A DNA stretch of 64,000 bases, from positions 62,001 through 126,000 of the forward strand of contig CAMAXI010000006.1 of the NCBI GenBank assembly GCA_945862165.1, given 5' to 3'. Position numbers and translations under genes: made by a program. Below are positions 2-8,874 of this stretch, one piece after another. Numbering within the stretch: position 1 is the stretch's first letter; every line of letters begins with the position of its first letter. The notes beneath the pieces were generated by a model. That model made no database searches. It was given only the letters and a program-made list of their open reading frames with translations, and was not told the DNA's origin. Origin of the DNA: Chryseobacterium gleum. GTDB lineage: Bacteria > Bacteroidota > Bacteroidia > Flavobacteriales_D > Crocinitomicaceae.

Positions 2-2554
2 GCAACTACATTGACAGCTTCTGCTGCAGACGTTGACGGAACAGTAACGCAAGTTGAATTCTTCGTAGACGGTGTTTCTGTTGGTGTTGATAACGCTTCT
101 CCATTTACAGCTAACTATACTGCTGTTGCTGGTAACCATAACGTAACAGCTGTTGCTACAGATAACAAAGGAGATAACACAACTTCTTCTGCTGTTGCTA
201 TCACGGTTGCTAACAACCAAGCTCCTACAGTTACTGTTGCTGGTTCTAACGGTATCGTTGGAGATGTAATCACATTAACTTCTACAGCTTCTGATGTTGA
301 TGGTTCAGTTGCACAAGTTGAGTTCTTCGTAGATAACGTTTCTGTTGGTGTTGATAATACAGCTCCTTACTCTGTAAACTGGACTTCATCTTTAGGTGTT
401 CGTGCTATCAAAGCAGTTGCTACAGATAACTTAGGTTTAACTGGAACTTCAACTACACCAAACATTACAATTGCTGCTAACAATCCTCCATCAGCAATTA
501 TCGCTTCTACCTCTCCTTCTATTGCAGGTTCAATCATCGCTCCTACAGTTATCACAATCAACGCTACTGCAACAGATTCTGATGGTACTGTAACTGGTGT
601 TGAATTCTTAATCAATGGTACAGTAGTTGGTACAGATAATACTGCTCCATATTCTTACGATTGGACAAGTACACCTGGAAATAAATCATTAACTGTTAGA
701 TCTACAGATAACAAAGGTGCAGTAACTACTTCAGCTGCTCAAACTTTCTCTGTTGCAGATCCAAACGCACTTCCTTATGAAGTTGTAACGGTAAGTCAAA
801 AATGTAATCTTCCAACATTCAACATCGCTGTTGCTGCTGCTGCTACAAACACAGTAGACAACGTGATTGGTTATGATATGGTTGTTGCTTATGACAAAAC
901 AAGAGTTACACCAACAGGAAATATTACTGTAAACAATGAATTGATTAACCCAGCATTCGTTCAAACTTCAAACGCTATCAACGCTGTAGCTGGAACAATG
1001 AACATTTCTGTTTACTTCAAAGCGAATGCTCCTGCTAACACTAAATTTGCTGGTATCGGTAAAATCATTACTGTAGAATTTAACAAAACAGCAAACTTTG
1101 CTTCTGTGGATACAGCAGTAATATCTTCTTCTTTCTTACAAGAGTCTTACATAGGTGGTGTTTCTACAAAAGCTGTATCTGCTGGTAAAGCAATTACATT
1201 TAAAGATTTCAACTTCCCAATGGCATTAAGATTCTGGGGAGACAATACACCAATCAAATTTGACGCGAGTCGTCCAAATGATTACTTAGCTACTTCTGTA
1301 TTTGGTGCAGATGTAACTACTGGTATTCAAAATGGTAACAACTTAGAAGTTAAAGCGAATATCGATGGTAACATGACATACGACTTAAACAATGGTTTAG
1401 GTATTCGTATCGTAAGAGATATCGCTAATACATCGGATGTATTTGACGTAGTAAACGCAGGTGACGTTAACATCATTAACTCTATCTTGTTAAATGATGT
1501 AGCGGTAACTCCTACAGTTTATCAAATGATTGCAGCGGATGTTAACATTGATGGTGTTATTTCTGCGGGAGATATCTCTCAAATCAGACAAAGAGGTGCT
1601 TTAAGCATTGGTGAATTTAGACAAGCTTGGAACTATTCTAATGCTGGTGTTTCTAATGGACAAGCTTCTAAAGACTGGACATTCGTTGACTCATTAAGAA
1701 TCAAAAACAATCCTGCTTACCAAATTTCAGCTACATATCCTTCTAATGATTTAGCTGGTGGTTTCTCTAAATCAAGAGTTCCTGTAACTCCTTTCTTCTT
1801 ACCTGCTACAGTTACTGATTTTGCTATCTGTCCAGATATCATAGCAGAAACTTACAAAGGTATCATGATGGGTGACGTTGATGGTAGTTATGCTAACTTC
1901 ACAAACAATGGTTTAGTGAAAAACTTAGATAACAAAATCGTATTTGACTTTGCTAACGTAACTGTTAATGGTTCTACTATTGAAGTTCCTGTTTCTATCG
2001 AAGGTGAAAAAGCAGTGAAAGGTCTTGACTTTGCACTTACATTCAACGAAGAAGTTTTAACATACAAAAACGTTGTTGTTAAATCTAACGAAATCGAAAG
2101 CTTCAGTCATTTCAATACAAATGATAGAACTTTACGTTTCACATCTAATGATTTCTCTAATTTCGATAAGAACTCAAACGTAGTTTCTGTTCAATTTGAT
2201 GCTGCAAAAGGAATGATTAACATGGAAGATTTAACATCTGTTAAAGGTATGTTAGATGGTAAAGCTGTAAAAGTAGAATTAAGAGGTTTAGCTGCTGGAG
2301 TTGCTGCATTAGATGCTTCAAACTCAGTGAAAGTTTATCCTAATCCTGCTGCTGGTTTATTAAACATCGTTGCTGGTGTTAACTCTAAAGTAATTATCAC
2401 AGATATTTCTGGAAAAGAAGTAATCTTTGCTGGTGACTTAAATGCTAACATGCAACAAGCAATCAATGTTTCTAACTTTGCAAACGGTATGTACTTAGTA
2501 AAAGTATATAACGAAAACTTTAACAAAGTAGAAAGAGTTGTTATAAACAACTAA
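2..2554 (+). CDS. T9SS type A cargo: Ig-like repeats, cohesin-like and dockerin-like modules (5' end off window)
   Basis: This is the C-terminal 850 or so residues of a secreted adhesin or matrix protein; the reading frame is open at the window edge. In order it holds three Ig-like repeats (about bases 2-230, 230-480 and 480-770, each with a VEFFVD/VEFLIN strand and a VATDNKG/RSTDNKG strand), a cohesin-like beta domain (780-1200), and a dockerin-like segment (1430-1600) whose second loop ADVNIDGVISAGD keeps the calcium spacing DxNxDGxxxxxD. A second cohesin-like domain follows (1935-2290). The tail of about 80 residues with VKVYPNPA and NGMYLVKVYN is a type A sorting domain for T9SS export and surface attachment. 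Codons such as AAC, TTC and GCT are favoured more than in the next two genes, which suggests high expression. The ligand is unknown. Confidence 0.85.
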   Translation, partial: ATTLTASAADVDGTVTQVEFFVDGVSVGVDNASPFTANYTAVAGNHNVTAVATDNKGDNTTSSAVAITVANNQAPTVTVAGSNGIVGDVITLTSTASDVDGSVAQVEFFVDNVSVGVDNTAPYSVNWTSSLGVRAIKAVATDNLGLTGTSTTPNITIAANNPPSAIIASTSPSIAGSIIAPTVITINATATDSDGTVTGVEFLINGTVVGTDNTAPYSYDWTSTPGNKSLTVRSTDNKGAVTTSAAQTFSVADPNALPYEVVTVSQKCNLPTFNIAVAAAATNTVDNVIGYDMVVAYDKTRVTPTGNITVNNELINPAFVQTSNAINAVAGTMNISVYFKANAPANTKFAGIGKIITVEFNKTANFASVDTAVISSSFLQESYIGGVSTKAVSAGKAITFKDFNFPMALRFWGDNTPIKFDASRPNDYLATSVFGADVTTGIQNGNNLEVKANIDGNMTYDLNNGLGIRIVRDIANTSDVFDVVNAGDVNIINSILLNDVAVTPTVYQMIAADVNIDGVISAGDISQIRQRGALSIGEFRQAWNYSNAGVSNGQASKDWTFVDSLRIKNNPAYQISATYPSNDLAGGFSKSRVPVTPFFLPATVTDFAICPDIIAETYKGIMMGDVDGSYANFTNNGLVKNLDNKIVFDFANVTVNGSTIEVPVSIEGEKAVKGLDFALTFNEEVLTYKNVVVKSNEIESFSHFNTNDRTLRFTSNDFSNFDKNSNVVSVQFDAAKGMINMEDLTSVKGMLDGKAVKVELRGLAAGVAALDASNSVKVYPNPAAGLLNIVAGVNSKVIITDISGKEVIFAGDLNANMQQAINVSNFANGMYLVKVYNENFNKVERVVINN

Positions 2555-2574
2555 TCATACAATTGATATCCGGA

Positions 2575-2606
2575 AAGGTCGTGGTGAAAACCACGGCCTT
2601 TTTTTA
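2575..2606 (+). terminator. Intrinsic terminator after the first cargo gene
   Basis: An 11-bp stem (2575-2585 with 2590-2600, one G-U pair) has a GAAA tetraloop and runs into a T-tract. It lies about 20 nt after the stop codon. Its core AAGGTCGTGG recurs after the next gene. Confidence 0.9.
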
Positions 2607-2674
2607 TGCCCAAAAATGAAGGAGATTAATGTTAAATACACAAGGATTTAAACATATCATAGCATATAGTTTAA

Positions 2675-2703
2675 TTTGTTTTGATGATTCAAAAGTACCT
2701 TTG
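2675..2703 (+). promoter_or_regulatory. Promoter of the chimeric cargo gene
   Basis: TTTG at 2675-2678 and TACCTTTG at 2696-2703, 17 nt apart, fit the Bacteroidota -33/-7 pattern. They place the transcript start about 30 nt before the ATG at 2741. A homologous promoter precedes the next gene. Confidence 0.65.
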
Positions 2704-2740
2704 CTGGAATGTTACAAGATGTAACTCTAACCAAACCTCT

Positions 2741-3766
2741 ATGAAAAAAATAATTTGGATATTACTGCTGTTTTTTGCCGCACAACTAAATGCAAAAGAG
2801 ACAAACAATAATTGTAAAAATAGCGCTTTTCTTCCTCCTCCTCCACCGGATGTTGCGAATGACACCTTGTTTTTTGATTTGCAAAATGCAATGTATACAT
2901 TTTCAAAAACTGAAAACTTTGTAGATATTCCGATCTATGTAAGATCCAAAGGGCCTGTAAGTTCTTTTGACTTTAGAATGAAATTTAATCAAACAAAACT
3001 TACCTATATAAGTACAACGAATATAGAAGCACAACTTCAACCATTTACTTCATTAAACTCCAATGATAATTTCTTACGAAACAACACATCTGGTCCTTCC
3101 GTATCTTATGTAATACCAAATAATACTACCCTAGTATATGTTCGTTTTCAAATCAACGTGCCATGTACAACAATTTCAGAAACAGATTTCTTTTCTATAA
3201 CGACTTTATTGGTTGGTTATCCGTGTAAAAACCAGGTGACTCCTGTTACACCGATAACTGCCAATACAATATTAACCACCAGCTTACTTAGCAGTGGATC
3301 CCCTATTCTATTTTATGGCCCTACAAACAATGCAGGTATTCCAATAACTTCCTACAGTTGGAATCTTGGAAATGGGGTAACTTCAACAGATAAAAATGTA
3401 AGTACGACATATACCGATCCAGGAAATTATAATGCAAAATTAGTAGTAAAAACTGCAGAAGGCTGTAAAGATTCAATAACGCAAGTCCTTAACATCCTTA
3501 CTGCTGGTATTGCATCATTGGATGCTACAGACAAGGTGAAAATTTATCCAAATCCTGCGGATGGTATAGTAAACATCTTTGCTAACGTTAACGCGAAAGT
3601 AATGATCACGGATATTTCTGGAAAAGAGGTGCTGTTTTCTAGTAACGTACATGCAAACATACAAGAATCAATCAATGTTTCAAACCTTACAAACGGTATA
3701 TACTTAGTGAAGATTTACAATGAAAGCTATAAAAAAGTAGAACGAATCGTTATCAATCACAAATAA
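2741..3766 (+). CDS. T9SS type A cargo with cohesin-like and PKD domains; mosaic of its two neighbours
   Basis: A 341-residue exported protein. The start at 2741 is chosen because MKKIIWILLLFFAAQLNA is a clean signal peptide; the upstream in-frame extension to 2681 covers the promoter. Residues about 30-190 form a cohesin-like domain (SSFDFRMKFNQTKL), followed by one PKD domain (YSWNLGNG) and a type A sorting tail (VKIYPNPA, NGIYLVKIYN). The first 255 or so residues are close to the head of the next gene, while the last 85 or so match the tail of the previous gene, so it is probably a recombination product. Surface attachment through T9SS is expected; the binding partner is unknown. Confidence 0.85.
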   Translation: MKKIIWILLLFFAAQLNAKETNNNCKNSAFLPPPPPDVANDTLFFDLQNAMYTFSKTENFVDIPIYVRSKGPVSSFDFRMKFNQTKLTYISTTNIEAQLQPFTSLNSNDNFLRNNTSGPSVSYVIPNNTTLVYVRFQINVPCTTISETDFFSITTLLVGYPCKNQVTPVTPITANTILTTSLLSSGSPILFYGPTNNAGIPITSYSWNLGNGVTSTDKNVSTTYTDPGNYNAKLVVKTAEGCKDSITQVLNILTAGIASLDATDKVKIYPNPADGIVNIFANVNAKVMITDISGKEVLFSSNVHANIQESINVSNLTNGIYLVKIYNESYKKVERIVINHK

Positions 3767-3781
3767 TACATTTGATTTTAG

Positions 3782-3813
3782 AAAAGGTCGTGGTGAATTC
3801 TCGACCTTTTTTT
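3782..3813 (+). terminator. Intrinsic terminator after the chimeric cargo gene
   Basis: AAAAGGTCG (3782-3790) pairs with CGACCTTTT (3802-3810) around an 11-nt loop, followed by T residues. The sequence is related to the terminator at 2575. Confidence 0.85.
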
Positions 3814-3882
3814 ATGCGCAAAAAGGAATGAAATTAATATTAAGCAAACAAGTAATTAAACATATCATAACACAGAGTTTAT

Positions 3883-3911
3883 TTTGATTTAGTGTTTCAA
3901 AAGTAACTTTG
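3883..3911 (+). promoter_or_regulatory. Promoter of the type B cargo gene
   Basis: TTTG (3883-3886), 17 nt, then TAACTTTG (3904-3911). Spacing and flanks (CATATCATA upstream, TTCAAAAGTA just before the -7 box) are shared with the promoter at 2675, showing the two regions are duplicates. Confidence 0.65.
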
Positions 3912-3946
3912 TTAGGTTACGTGAAGTAACTTTTAATCGCAAATCT

Positions 3947-6900
3947 ATGAAAAAAATACTTTGGATTTTAATCCTATTTTTCGCCTCTCAATTAAACGCA
4001 AAAGAGACTTTTAATTTTTCCAACAACTCCTCTTTTCTTCCGCCCCCTCCTCCAGATGTTGCAAATGACACCTTGTTTTTTGATTTACAAAATGCTATCT
4101 ATTCATTTTCAAATGGTGTGACTTATTTTGACCTACCAATATTTGTAAAATCGAAAGGTCCTGTGAGTTCTTTTGATTTTAGAATGAAATTCAATCAAAC
4201 AAAATTAACATACATAAGTACAAGCAAAGTAGTTGTGCAACTAGACCCTTATACCTTTTTAAATCCGAATGATAATTTCTTAAGAAACAACACATCAGGC
4301 CCTTACGTTTCCTATGTAATTCCAAATAATACCACGCTTGTATATGTTCGTTTTCAAATCAACGTACCATGTACTACAATTTCGGAAGCAGATTTCTTCG
4401 CAATAACCACTTTGTTAGTGGGGTATCCTTGTAAAAACAAAGTTACACCTGTTACACCGATAACTGCCAACTCAAAATTAACAACTAGTTTACTTTGTAG
4501 TGGTTCTCCAATAGTTTTTAACGGACCCTTAAATTCCTCCGGTATTTCAATTGCAACCTATAATTGGGATCTTGGAAATGGTTCAACTTCTACAACTCAA
4601 AATGTAAGTACTACGTATGTCGATCCTGGAAAATATACTACAAAATTAGTGGTTCAAACTGCAGAAGGTTGTAAGGATTCCGTTACCCAAGAACTTGAAA
4701 TTAATCAATCGCCAAAAGCAAACTTTACTTCGGAGTTCTTACCACTTATAGACTCTATGAAATTTACAAATATTTCAGAAAATGTAGGGAGTTCACCAAC
4801 CTATGAATGGAATTTTGGGGATCAAAAAACAAGTACAGAATCAAATCCATCTCATCAGTATAAATCTGGAGGGGAATACGGAGTTACATTAAAGGTAAGA
4901 ACAACCGAAGGATGTGTTAGCTCCTACTTCTTTTCTATTATACTTTCCAAACCAACCGCAAATTTCACGAACTCAACCAATGCATGTGTAGATGCTTCCA
5001 TGAATTTTATAAATACTTCTGTGTATACCGGTGGTAAGCTAACAAAATGGGAATGGGACTTTGGTGATGATACTAAATCAGACCTTGAAAATCCATCCCA
5101 CATTTTTTCTAAATCTGGAACCTATCAAGTTTCATTAACCGTAACTAGTGATAAAGGTTCGAAAGGAAATATTACCAAGACAATCACCATAAACAATAAA
5201 CCAAAAGTAGATTTTGTATCTAATTCTATCAGTGGATGTTCTCCTTTCCCAGTTAATTTTAGTGATCAATCCATTACAGATGAAGGTTCCGAATATTTAT
5301 GGGATTTTGGGAATTTTAAATTATCTACTGAAAAAGACCCTACCCATACATTTATAGAAAATCGTTCGTACACAATAAAAGAAATTATTACAACCAAAGG
5401 TGGTTGTAAAGATTCATTAGTTAGAACATCCTACATTACTGTTTTAAATGTTCCCATTGCAGAATTTAGCAACTCTGTAACATGTTCGAATGCTATCATA
5501 AATTTCACCGATCAATCCACCGTATTAGCTTCTAAAATCACTTCATGGTTCTGGGATTTCGGAGACGGTAGTACATCAAACATTCAAAATCCAACACACG
5601 TATATGCTAAAAAAGGTAAATACAAATTAAACCTTACGGCTACTTCAAGTATTGGTTGTTCAAATGATATTGTTAGAGATCTAGTTATCAATGACAAACC
5701 AATTGTAGTATTCAGTGCACAAAACACATCTGGCTGCTTACCACTTACGCCAAAATTCAATGATTTCTCTACAACGGTGGATGGTTCAACCTATCAATGG
5801 ATATTTGGGGATAGCACCACTTCTACTGAAAAATCGCCAAGCCATACCTATTTAAAAGATGGTTTATTCAATGTAAAAGAAATTATTACCGCACCAGGCG
5901 GATGTAAAGATTCCCTTGAAATTCCAGGATATATCTATGCATTAAGTGCTGTTAAACCTAATTTTACAGTAAAAAACTTTTGCGCTAATCGTATCACAGA
6001 TTTTATCGATAGCTCTTCTGTTACAAAAGGTTCCATTAAAAATTGGAAATGGGAAATAAACAACGATATCATTCAAGCGCAAAACAAAACGTATGTATTT
6101 AATAAAGCTGGAAAATACCTAATCAAACTAACCGTATCTTCCGATCAAAACTGTGAAAATAGCATTCAAAAAGAAATTGAAATAGATGATGTACCAAAAG
6201 TGAGTTTCACTTCCGATAAAGTAGAAGGTTGTTTCCCGGAAGTAATCAACTTTTTAAATACTTCTATTGTGTCATCCAACACTAAATTTAAATGGGATTT
6301 TGGAGATGGATTCAAAGACTTTACACCTAGTCCATTCCATAAATATCAATCCATGGACACATTTACCGTAAAATGTATCGCAACTTCTCCATTAGGATGT
6401 ACCGACAGTTTGATAAAAGCTAAAATGATAACCATCTACCCTATACCAACTGCTAAATTCGCAATTAAAAACACGAGTGCATTAGTGCCAAATTTAAAAA
6501 TTGCTTTCGAAAATTTATCGAGTTATGCAAGTGAGTTCTTGTGGGAATTTGGAGATAATACCAGTTCAGCACTCGTAACACCTCAACATGCATATATCGA
6601 AGAAAAATCAGCAGATTATCAAGTTTGTTTAACGGCATACTCCTCTAAATCCTGTTACACTACTGCGTGTGATTCTATAAAAATAAACTTTTCAACCATT
6701 TTAGCTGTTCCATCTGCATTTTCGCCAAATGGTGACAATAACAATGACGTCTTTAAAATTTTAGGAGGTCCAATTGTTAAACTCGATTTAAAAATATTCA
6801 ATGAATGGGGGAATGAAATTTTTGCAAGTACCTCTCAAAATGAAGGATGGGATGGAACAAACAAAGGACTACCACAACCAATTGGCTCCTACCAATACGC

Positions 6901-6967
6901 ATTTACTGCTACCACAGTAGATGGTAAAGAAGTTACCAAAAATGGTATAATCAATCTTACGCGTTAA
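3947..6967 (+). CDS. T9SS type B cargo: cohesin-like domain plus about nine PKD repeats
   Basis: A 1006-residue exported protein. After the signal peptide (MKKILWILILFFASQLNA) comes a cohesin-like domain (residues about 30-190), then nine PKD-like repeats marked by WDLGNG, WNFGDQ, WDFGDD, WDFGNF, WDFGDG, WIFGDS, a degenerate WEINND, WDFGDG and WEFGDN. The last 85 or so residues (VPSAFSPNGDNNND, IFNEWGNEIF, GWDGTNKG, GSYQYAFT) are the gliding-motility-associated C-terminal domain, the type B T9SS sorting signal. Such cargo is typically encoded next to a PorP/SprF protein, as here, with 12 nt between the genes. Likely a long adhesin or filament component; the ligand is unknown. Confidence 0.9.
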   Translation: MKKILWILILFFASQLNAKETFNFSNNSSFLPPPPPDVANDTLFFDLQNAIYSFSNGVTYFDLPIFVKSKGPVSSFDFRMKFNQTKLTYISTSKVVVQLDPYTFLNPNDNFLRNNTSGPYVSYVIPNNTTLVYVRFQINVPCTTISEADFFAITTLLVGYPCKNKVTPVTPITANSKLTTSLLCSGSPIVFNGPLNSSGISIATYNWDLGNGSTSTTQNVSTTYVDPGKYTTKLVVQTAEGCKDSVTQELEINQSPKANFTSEFLPLIDSMKFTNISENVGSSPTYEWNFGDQKTSTESNPSHQYKSGGEYGVTLKVRTTEGCVSSYFFSIILSKPTANFTNSTNACVDASMNFINTSVYTGGKLTKWEWDFGDDTKSDLENPSHIFSKSGTYQVSLTVTSDKGSKGNITKTITINNKPKVDFVSNSISGCSPFPVNFSDQSITDEGSEYLWDFGNFKLSTEKDPTHTFIENRSYTIKEIITTKGGCKDSLVRTSYITVLNVPIAEFSNSVTCSNAIINFTDQSTVLASKITSWFWDFGDGSTSNIQNPTHVYAKKGKYKLNLTATSSIGCSNDIVRDLVINDKPIVVFSAQNTSGCLPLTPKFNDFSTTVDGSTYQWIFGDSTTSTEKSPSHTYLKDGLFNVKEIITAPGGCKDSLEIPGYIYALSAVKPNFTVKNFCANRITDFIDSSSVTKGSIKNWKWEINNDIIQAQNKTYVFNKAGKYLIKLTVSSDQNCENSIQKEIEIDDVPKVSFTSDKVEGCFPEVINFLNTSIVSSNTKFKWDFGDGFKDFTPSPFHKYQSMDTFTVKCIATSPLGCTDSLIKAKMITIYPIPTAKFAIKNTSALVPNLKIAFENLSSYASEFLWEFGDNTSSALVTPQHAYIEEKSADYQVCLTAYSSKSCYTTACDSIKINFSTILAVPSAFSPNGDNNNDVFKILGGPIVKLDLKIFNEWGNEIFASTSQNEGWDGTNKGLPQPIGSYQYAFTATTVDGKEVTKNGIINLTR

Positions 6968-6979
6968 AACTGAAAGACA

Positions 6980-8269
6980 ATGAAACTAATTTTATCCATA
7001 CTTTTATCTTTTAGTGCTTTAATCAGCCTTGCTCAAGATGCTAGATATTATCAATATGACCTAAATGCGTTGTATCTGAACCCTGCCCTAACAGGTGAGC
7101 GAATTTATGCTTCTAAAGGTGTTCAATTAAACACAAACAATGGTTACCGTTCTTCTAATGCTTCTCGTGAATCAGGAAATATAATTTCTTCCTTAGGAGT
7201 AGATATGCCTTTAACCAACCGTTTTGCTATTGGACAATTTTTAGGCAATAATAGAAGTGAAAGTGGTGCTTTTAATACCTTCAACTTTTTACTTTCAGGT
7301 GCATATAAAATTATTAATCCTGCAAATAATGAGGATAAAAGATGTCTCTCAATAGGAATGCAAATTGGTGTTTTAAACACGAGTATGAACACCCAAAATT
7401 TCACCTACGCATCGCAATACAATCCTAATTCTGCAAGCGGATTCGATAATTCTTTTGCTTCTGGAGAAAACTATACGAGACAAAGTTTGTATGCTTTAGA
7501 TAACAATGTTGGAATCTATTATCGAACCAAATTTGGCAAAAAGAAAACGTTATTAGCTACAGGACTTTCATTTTATCATGTAGGAACAATCAACAAAGCA
7601 AATACGATTGATCACACAACAGATTTACGTTCTAACTTCCATATCAACCTAATCTATCCAATAGGAGAATTTTTGACAATTACACCAAAATTCTTATACA
7701 TGAATCAAAGTAATGCTAAAGAATATAATACCGGTTTATTAATAAACTTTAAAGTAAATAAACATACAGAACCTATCGTTGGTGTAAACTGGATTTATCA
7801 AAAAGCATTGGTTGCACAAATCGGCTTAAAATTTAATGAAAACAATATAATTCGTGTAAGTTATGCAACCTCCATTGGTGATTACGTGGCTTCCGGTTCA
7901 AGAGGTATGGAATTTTCGTATGTTCATATTTCTAATCGTAAACTTCAACCTATCCAAAAAACGAATGTTAATGGAGATTCAAAAGATGAAAAAGGAAACG
8001 AAGCTATTCCTGTTCCAACAACGAATGACCCTGAAGATATCTATTATCTATTGAAAATGAAAAACATTCTTAATCGTCTAACTACAGTAGCAAATACCGA
8101 AAATATTTCACCAAAAGACATTCAAAAAGAATTGGATAAAGTACAAGAGGAATTAATTGAATTGTCAAATATTCAGACAAGTCCTGAGATGACACCTATA
8201 ATAGATGCATATATCAAGCAAATCGAAGATAAATTGAAAATTTTACAACAAAAACTGCAAAAGAAATGA
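6980..8269 (+). CDS. PorP/SprF-family T9SS membrane protein with a C-terminal coiled-coil extension
   Basis: A 429-residue outer-membrane protein with signal peptide MKLILSILLSFSALISLAQ. The family start DARYYQYDLNALYLNPALTG and alternating beta-strand pattern to about residue 320 are typical of PorP/SprF, which helps a type B cargo reach or stay on the cell surface. Family members are usually near 300-340 residues; here about 110 more follow. These comprise a polar linker, then helical heptads (IQKELDKVQEELIELSNIQ, IKQIEDKLKILQQKLQ). Its stop overlaps the next start (ATGA), and the upstream gene is a type B cargo, so the three are probably co-transcribed. Confidence 0.88.
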   Translation: MKLILSILLSFSALISLAQDARYYQYDLNALYLNPALTGERIYASKGVQLNTNNGYRSSNASRESGNIISSLGVDMPLTNRFAIGQFLGNNRSESGAFNTFNFLLSGAYKIINPANNEDKRCLSIGMQIGVLNTSMNTQNFTYASQYNPNSASGFDNSFASGENYTRQSLYALDNNVGIYYRTKFGKKKTLLATGLSFYHVGTINKANTIDHTTDLRSNFHINLIYPIGEFLTITPKFLYMNQSNAKEYNTGLLINFKVNKHTEPIVGVNWIYQKALVAQIGLKFNENNIIRVSYATSIGDYVASGSRGMEFSYVHISNRKLQPIQKTNVNGDSKDEKGNEAIPVPTTNDPEDIYYLLKMKNILNRLTTVANTENISPKDIQKELDKVQEELIELSNIQTSPEMTPIIDAYIKQIEDKLKILQQKLQKK

Positions 8270-8874
8270 AAAAATTAATCGTATTTAGCATTCTATTTTA
8301 TCACGGATTTACTTTTTCACAAGACACAACGCATGTAAAACATACGCAAAAAATAAGTAATTTATTAGACAAAGTTCAAGTTATTAATGAGGGTAAAATA
8401 AATAATAAGAAACAAGTAATTAATAAAAGTAAGATTGATGGTTTAATGTTGAAAATTGAAACTATCAATAATGAACAACAGAAAATTGCTACTTCAAAAG
8501 AGTACAACCTGGATTCGTTACGTGCTGTTATTCAAATATTAAATTTCAACAATCTACAAAAGGATTCTCTTATTGCAACACTTAAAAAACAACTTGAATC
8601 CCAAAAAACATCCAACCAATCATTCACTGCTGTACTAACAAAACAACCAAACAGTATTTCACATAAGTATATCGTGCTTGGTGCGTTTCACTACAAATCA
8701 AATGCAGAAAAACAGTTGTCTAAACTTAGAAATTATAATCTAGAGCTAATTCCTACACATACGAATCAACTTCATTATGTAGTTTATAAAATGAAACCGA
8801 ACGAAAAAATAAATGCAACATTACATAAATTCAGAAATCAGGTAGATCCAAACGCTTGGTATATTTCGTTTTAA
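8266..8874 (+). CDS. Exported coiled-coil protein with a SPOR-like C-terminal domain
   Basis: A 202-residue protein with a signal peptide ending near TFSQD. Residues about 25-125 are polar and helix-prone (KIDGLMLKIETINNEQQKI, DSLIATLKKQLESQK). The last 70 residues (KYIVLGAFHYKSNAEKQLSKL ends with the YVVYKM strand) resemble a SPOR fold, which in other proteins binds denuded peptidoglycan. It overlaps the PorP/SprF gene by 4 nt. A periplasmic role linking the PorP/SprF extension to the cell wall is inferred, not shown. Confidence 0.7.
   Translation: MKKLIVFSILFYHGFTFSQDTTHVKHTQKISNLLDKVQVINEGKINNKKQVINKSKIDGLMLKIETINNEQQKIATSKEYNLDSLRAVIQILNFNNLQKDSLIATLKKQLESQKTSNQSFTAVLTKQPNSISHKYIVLGAFHYKSNAEKQLSKLRNYNLELIPTHTNQLHYVVYKMKPNEKINATLHKFRNQVDPNAWYISF

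What the first reader, a model, noticed from the sequence alone, without database searches (positions are those of the whole stretch)
2555..3946. Mosaic cargo gene formed by unequal crossover, with duplicated promoter and terminator
The gene at 2741-3766 has the promoter, signal peptide, cohesin-like and PKD domain of the next gene, and the sorting tail and terminator of the previous gene. The order terminator-promoter-head|tail-terminator-promoter is what a crossover between sister copies would leave. It swaps a type B for a type A sorting signal, changing the predicted surface-attachment route.
Basis: partly seen in the sequence, partly recalled or inferred. Interest (0 to 1): 0.6.

Follow-up and report, generated by a model that had tools for sequence, protein, structure and literature searches.

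The report
Mosaic surface-protein gene from tandem duplication
A 1.2-kb stretch spanning the end of one secreted-protein gene and the start of the next was copied in tandem in an ancestor of three related bacteria, making a new in-between gene with one neighbour's front and the other's export tail, which has stayed an intact protein since.

Summary
Window 2291-3496 (A's tail, terminator, promoter and a B-type head) and 3497-4702 are one ~1.2-kb unit repeated head to tail: 77.9% identity over 1195 columns, 957 bits, against at most 34 bits for 20 shuffled queries. Similarity drops on both sides. The middle gene M (2741-3766) joins B's head to A's type A T9SS tail at codons 252-254 (about 3496-3500).

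Three genomes of the genus, this one included and one gyrB clade, carry M with the same junction. Six have A directly beside B; four gave no match to A. M heads form one clade (95/99.8), pointing to one old duplication; outer parts of G000's copy look closer to its own neighbours, perhaps by partial conversion. M is constrained (head dN/dS 0.16-0.23).

S is not M's orthologue (p-AU 1.7e-4), so M re-created an arrangement not seen in the rest of its genus. The switch from PorP/SprF to PorV/PorU export is inferred, not shown.

The parts
2..2554 (+). Gene A (3' part; full gene 1144 aa starts upstream of the window): T9SS cargo with Big_7 domains and a type A sorting tail; donor of M's tail
2291..3496 (+). 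Copy 1 of the ~1.2-kb tandem unit: A tail + terminator + promoter + M head
3497..4702 (+). Copy 2 of the unit: M tail + terminator + promoter + B head
2572..2603 (+). Terminator-like hairpin behind A (-21.2 kcal/mol for 2560-2610, z -5.05), with a T run
   Evidence: the consensus scan did not list it
2675..2703 (+). Promoter-like TTTG-N17-TANNTTTG before M
   Evidence: pattern alone is weak: 12 in the window, 6.4 expected; alignment
2741..3766 (+). Middle gene M, 341 aa: signal-peptide-like start (by eye), cohesin-like domain (sub-threshold), one PKD domain, type A T9SS tail
3494..3502 (+). Junction between B-derived head and A-derived tail (codons 252-254 of M)
   Evidence: consistent with the same codons in three genomes
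3780..3812 (+). Terminator-like hairpin behind M, second copy of the A terminator (-13.9 kcal/mol for 3775-3820, z -2.89)
3883..3911 (+). Promoter-like TTTG-N17-TANNTTTG before B, second copy
3947..6967 (+). Gene B, 1006 aa: same head, 9 PKD_4 stretches, type B (CHU_C) tail; donor of M's head
6980..8269 (+). PorP/SprF-family outer-membrane protein, presumed shuttle of B
   Evidence: PF11751, TIGR03519

Best explanation
Origin (well supported): in the common ancestor of G000, G008 and G010, a ~1.2-kb segment running from the start of A's C-terminal sorting tail to just past B's first PKD domain was duplicated in tandem, in frame. This left A and B whole and made gene M between them, with B's promoter, signal peptide, head and first PKD domain and A's type A tail and terminator. 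M has stayed an intact 340-341-aa protein under purifying selection. Function (inferred): M displays the same ~170-residue head that B carries at its N terminus. M's type A tail should send it out by the PorV shuttle and PorU attachment complex, independently of B's PorP/SprF-type partner, so one binding head is presented in two surface settings: a long PKD stalk on the PorP route (B) and a short anchor on the type A route (M).
For: Continuous repeat with clear edges. Nearly the same edges in G010: 264 nt before A's end and 745 nt into B, against 262 and 745 in G000. Junction codons consistent in three genomes. Six genomes of the genus have A (or its tail, in G002) directly beside B. M heads form one clade, 95/99.8, and grouping G000_M with G000_B is rejected, p-AU 6e-5. 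The carriers are one gyrB clade, 92.8/93. M heads fall inside the clade of this genus's B heads (100/98) and M tails inside the clade of the A tails of the seven closest genomes (100/100). dN/dS between M orthologues is 0.16-0.23 for heads and 0.19-0.23 for tails, upper 95% bootstrap bounds at most 0.46. M carries PF18962/TIGR04183 above cut-off; B carries PF13585/TIGR04131 with a PorP/SprF gene next to it. PorV and PorU are encoded in the genome. Type A substrates use PorV and type B substrates use cognate PorP/SprF shuttles (PMC12618676, abstract and introduction; PMC9143113, abstract).
Against: Tails and spacers do not show the single origin as the heads do: M tails are not a supported clade (50/0), the DNA tail tree puts G000_M beside G000_A (85.7/65) and the spacer tree is unresolved. 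In sliding windows the first ~120 nt and last ~170 nt of G000's M head, and its tail, are mostly closer to its own B and A than to the other Ms, and G000's M-B dS (0.99) is below that between orthologous B heads (1.29-2.70): partial conversion in G000, slower change there, or saturation noise. Whether M branched before or after the split from the sister clade is open (p-AU 0.27). No expression, secretion or localisation data exist. The head's binding function is unknown, its cohesin label is sub-threshold and its predicted structure poor (mean pLDDT 54.6). Many dS values exceed 1.
Confidence: 0.87

Rival explanations
1. M is the family's old short gene S (head + PKD + type A tail behind A), kept in place in this genus and later made to look like its neighbours by gene conversion from A and B.
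For: S occupies the same slot behind A in 14 of the 15 S loci read and has the same kind of architecture.
Against: Holding S and M heads together costs 60 log units (p-AU 1.7e-4). The six genomes of the genus outside the M clade that hold the locus have no gene in the slot. M's unit includes spacer, terminator and promoter, so conversion would have to cover 1.2 kb end to end. The three A-S-B loci of other genera that were tested show DNA similarity only inside the heads.
Confidence: 0.04
2. Two-step origin: a whole copy of B was made first, then its 3' part was replaced by A's tail and terminator.
For: Gives the same gene order.
Against: Needs two events and coincident ends; the copied stretch is one uninterrupted unit with nearly the same edges in G000 and G010.
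Confidence: 0.03
3. M arose in an earlier ancestor (before the split from G001/G004/G005/G009) and was lost in that sister group.
For: AU test does not reject the B heads of all seven genomes forming a clade without M (p 0.27).
Against: Needs an extra, clean loss that restores a 184-188-nt A-B spacer; in the best tree M sits with the carriers' B heads, but with support of only 46/69.
Confidence: 0.12
4. More than one event: G000's copy was made, or partly overwritten from its own A and B, separately from that of G008 and G010.
For: Outer parts of G000's unit are mostly closer to its own neighbours; G000_M tail groups with G000_A at 85.7/65.
Against: Heads as a whole reject G000_M with G000_B (p-AU 6e-5); junction codons and outer edges agree between G000 and G010. 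Partial overwriting is compatible with one origin.
Confidence: 0.1
5. M is a by-product under no selection (a decaying duplicate).
For: M changes faster at protein level than its parents: dN 0.16-0.19 against 0.10-0.12 for B heads, 0.27-0.42 against 0.01-0.04 for A tails.
Against: Open frame of 340-341 codons in three genomes whose gyrB dS is 0.48-0.73; dN/dS 0.16-0.23 with upper bounds at most 0.46.
Confidence: 0.05

Closest known systems
Chimeric genes formed by tandem duplication (Drosophila yakuba, PMC5460883, abstract read)
   Same: Tandem duplication makes a chimeric gene and shuffles regulatory parts.
   Different: Here in a bacterium, between two adjacent secreted-protein genes, in frame at a domain boundary, shared by three species-level genomes and changing an export signal.
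T9SS type A cargo (PF18962 / TIGR04183)
   Same: M and A both end in this domain above cut-off; PorV and PorU are encoded in the genome.
   Different: M's head comes from a type B cargo.
T9SS type B cargo with a downstream PorP/SprF partner (SprB-SprF kind)
   Same: Gene B followed by a PorP/SprF gene is this arrangement.
   Different: M kept only the head and has no type B tail.
Short type A 'S' genes in the same slot behind A in other genera of the family (not a named family)
   Same: Related head, PKD-like repeats in most, type A tail, directly behind A.
   Different: Not orthologous to M; tails not grouped with the local A tail; two PKD-like repeats or none instead of one (by eye; profile only for G077).

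Membership tests
Chimeric gene born by tandem duplication | Two parental genes, each similar over only one part of the chimera, switching at one point | tested here: met
Chimeric gene born by tandem duplication | Repeated unit continuous through the intergenic region, with matching outer edges | tested here: met
   (G000 and G010); in G008 it is found in three pieces, one break being where the M-B spacer has lost the terminator part
Chimeric gene born by tandem duplication | Relatives retain the unduplicated order | tested here: met
   A directly beside B in 6 of the 9 genomes of the genus with the locus
Chimeric gene born by tandem duplication | Homologous crossover as the mechanism | tested here: inconclusive
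   no long homology seen at the two breakpoints, by eye; a few shared bases at most
T9SS type A cargo | C-terminal PF18962/TIGR04183 domain above curated cut-off | tested here: met
T9SS type A cargo | PorV shuttle and PorU sortase encoded in the genome | tested here: met
T9SS type A cargo | Sec signal peptide | not tested
   start of M looks like one by eye; no predictor was run
T9SS type A cargo | Secretion and attachment by the PorV/PorU route | not testable with these tools
   needs experiment
T9SS type B cargo | C-terminal PF13585/TIGR04131 domain | tested here: not met
   absent from M at E 0.1, present in B
Cohesin domain | PF00963 above its gathering score | tested here: not met
   20.8-23.2 bits against 24.1 in M; 8 of 14 heads hit Cohesin at E up to 1, best 2.3e-5
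Cohesin domain | Cohesin fold | tested here: inconclusive
   AlphaFold model of the head has pLDDT mostly under 50; no fold search was run on it

The most novel reading that the evidence does not exclude
The slot behind A is under lasting selection for a short, type A-anchored version of the head. In a lineage without S, a single tandem duplication rebuilt the same layout from the neighbouring type B gene: a convergent re-creation of a missing gene that switched the head's T9SS route from PorP/SprF to PorV/PorU.
Probability: 0.3. Interest if true: 0.6.

Novelty: new member of a known kind. Interest (0 to 1): 0.4.

Why it matters
It is a case of gene birth in bacteria, placed on a tree of relatives, in which both parents, both edges, the unduplicated state and later constraint are visible, and in which one mutation gave a surface protein a different T9SS sorting signal. 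It offers a natural test of whether the head or the tail decides where a T9SS protein ends up. The parallel S genes raise the question of why a short type A version behind A recurs. I saw no report of a natural type B to type A tail switch by tandem duplication in the listings (open-licence PMC papers; only the top 12-15 of each list were shown).

Tried and rejected
Recent or G000-only origin: rejected, because M is shared with G008 and G010. M as the orthologue of S: rejected. Assembly artefact: unlikely, since M is on one contig in G000 and in G008; in G010 the contigs break inside M with a 149-nt identical overlap. Whole-head conversion between M and B in G000: rejected; partial conversion is hinted at and not settled. 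Microhomology at the breakpoints: not resolvable at this divergence. A cohesin fold for the head: the model was too poor to search, and the PDB profile search gave only two weak hits, E about 0.1, to chains named Endoglucanase. Consensus scans were unhelpful: 0 terminators found where shuffles give 0.7, and sigma-70 promoter-like sites at chance level, 7 against 7.0. YN00 failed for 9 of 21 pairs, so NG86 values are quoted. The species proxy was distorted by the long G002 branch and replaced by gyrB. All S heads as one clade is neither shown nor rejected (p-AU 0.30).

Mends: G000's M was read one base off and the G008 comparison matched itself; these parts were not used and were redone from then on. 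In one search the left edge of G010 was set by my choice of stretch; it was redone with wide stretches, which is the one quoted.

Rows left out: G189 (near-copy of G243) was left out; G116 and G129 have no A row. Of 29 family genomes outside the genus with a head match better than E 1e-25 (in which at most 11 candidates a genome were scored), stretches from 19 were read. In one search some bootstrap replicates failed (137-200 of 200 used).

Full report
WHAT WAS CHECKED. Repeat search gave three long direct repeats at one spacing: 2292-2588 / 3501-3797 (79%), 2594-2703 / 3802-3911 (82%) and 2738-3037 / 3944-4243 (78%), spacing 1206-1209. A global alignment showed one uninterrupted unit through coding and non-coding DNA, with identity dropping on both sides. 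Blastn of 2291-3496 against the window found 3501-4691 at 77.9% over 1195 columns, 957 bits; 20 doublet-shuffled queries reached at most 33.7 bits.

ANATOMY. Pfam and NCBIfam place a type A T9SS sorting domain at the end of A (52.3 bits, cut-off 27) and of M (58.6, cut-off 27). B has nine PKD_4 stretches and a type B domain (CHU_C 60 bits, cut-off 27), and a PorP/SprF-family gene follows it. M has one PKD domain. The 'cohesin-like' head is below Pfam's gathering score (20.8 bits in M, 22.1 in G008's M, cut-off 24.1; 8 of 14 heads hit it at E up to 1). Both spacers hold a hairpin with a T run (-21.2 kcal/mol, z -5.05; -13.9, z -2.89), which the consensus scan did not list. Both also hold TTTG-N17-TANNTTTG, at 2675-2703 and 3883-3911 (the pattern alone is only about twice chance, 12 against 6.4). 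I take that motif from recall as the Bacteroidota promoter type; of the papers I saw only the search listing.

BREAKPOINT. Reading codons side by side, M follows B through codon 252 and A from codon 254 (window about 3496-3500). The more diverged M genes of G008 and G010 are consistent with the same codons. The two reading frames meet in phase. I saw no long homology between the two breakpoints, so a homologous crossover is not shown; slippage or other illegitimate joining gives the same product.

RELATIVES. Of 13 genomes of the genus, 9 matched A: three with A-M-B (G000, G008, G010) and six with A directly beside B (G001, G004, G005, G009, G003, G002; gaps 174-188; in G002 only the end of A is on the contig). 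The other four (G006, G007, G011, G012) gave no match to A and only PKD-type partial matches to the head; they are 74-94% complete, so absence is not proven. In G010 the contigs break inside M with an identical 149-nt overlap, and the two pieces were joined in a script. With wide stretches, the unit starts 262 nt before A's end in G000 and 264 in G010, and ends 745 nt into B in both. In G008 it is found in three pieces; the M-B spacer has lost the terminator part (124 nt instead of about 182).

DATING. On gyrB, G008+G010 join G000 (92.8 SH-aLRT / 93 bootstrap) beside the four A-B sister genomes. M heads form one clade (95/99.8), and forcing G000_M with G000_B costs 30 log units (p-AU 6e-5). 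Against a simple picture: M tails are not a supported clade (50/0), the DNA tail tree puts G000_M beside G000_A (85.7/65) and the spacer tree is unresolved. Sliding windows show the first ~120 nt and last ~170 nt of G000's M head, and its tail, mostly closer to its own B and A than to the other two Ms, while the middle of the head is not. G000's M-B dS (0.99) is also lower than that between orthologous B heads (1.29-2.70). Partial conversion in G000, slower change at its ends or saturation could each cause this. Whether M branched before or after the split from the sister clade is open (p-AU 0.27). By eye, M's spacer is the more diverged copy and B's stays closer to the A-B state.

SELECTION. 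NG86 dN/dS between M orthologues is 0.16-0.23 for heads and 0.19-0.23 for tails (upper bootstrap bounds up to 0.32 and 0.46), against 0.04-0.08 for B heads and 0.04-0.15 for A tails. M is thus constrained but, for the heads clearly, looser than its parent. Many dS values exceed 1 and are rough.

THE WIDER FAMILY. A profile of the heads searched over 240 genomes of the family found head matches better than E 1e-25 in 29 genomes outside the genus; stretches from 19 of them were read. There the head comes in two forms: long genes of about 1000 aa like B, and short genes (S) of 246-418 aa, ending in a type A tail by profile in the one tested (G077) and by eye in the others printed. S lies directly behind A (recognised by its end and place) in 14 of 15 S loci; in the other (G129) the contig begins near S. 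A-S-B on one contig occurs in G077, G069 and G115; A-B without S in G075, G076 and G134. S and M heads as one clade is rejected (60 log units, p-AU 1.7e-4), while M sits inside this genus's B heads (100/98) and M tails inside the A tails of the seven closest genomes (100/100). In the three A-S-B loci, DNA similarity between the two halves is confined to the heads. So M is a separate gene that re-created the S layout.

HOW IT LIKELY WORKS. Supported by data: origin, intactness, constraint, sorting-domain class, presence of PorV (300.7 bits, 412.9 with its neighbour in frame; cut-off 250) and PorU (1165.8; cut-off 420) genes. Inferred: M is exported with PorV and handled by the attachment complex, whereas B uses the PorP/SprF protein beside it. 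This rests on PMC12618676 (abstract and introduction read) and PMC9143113 (abstract read). The head's ligand is unknown. The AlphaFold model of M is poor for the head (mean pLDDT 54.6 overall), so no fold search was made.

KNOWN OR NEW. Chimeric genes from tandem duplications are known (PMC5460883, abstract). T9SS type A and B tails are known and modular. I saw no report of a natural B-to-A tail switch made this way in the listings. I therefore call it a new member of a known kind, of moderate interest, raised by the parallel with S.

Noticed in passing
L091:5355-7061 (just upstream of A, outside the window): A ~560-870-aa protein (GACGCP-type motif near the start, C-terminal CPTDxNxDGxTxVxDF...C motif that looks like half a dockerin by eye) precedes A in this genome and in other family loci where the upstream stretch was read; the copy here gave no Pfam match at E 0.01.
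   Followed up: partly
window 1901-2260 (A, before its tail): The part of A just before its sorting tail is itself weakly similar to the M/B head (24-33% identity in several genomes), so A, B and M may all carry one head type.
   Followed up: no
window 2-2554 (gene A): A has low synonymous divergence between the three carriers (dS 0.28-0.49) compared with gyrB (0.48-0.73) and B heads (1.29-2.70), suggesting strong codon bias and high expression.
   Followed up: no
L087 (G008:C19), M-B spacer: G008 lost the terminator copy between M and B (spacer 124 nt against about 182), so M and B may be read together there.
   Followed up: partly
L126:7081-8337 (G077) and L127 (G074): The S heads of G077/G074 group with their own B heads (92/87) rather than with other S heads, hinting at another, older B-to-S origin; not statistically settled.
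   Followed up: partly
window 8266-8874: Small gene after the PorP/SprF gene with a weak, sub-threshold SPOR-like C-terminus (16.9 bits, cut-off 21); similar genes follow in six congeners.
   Followed up: no
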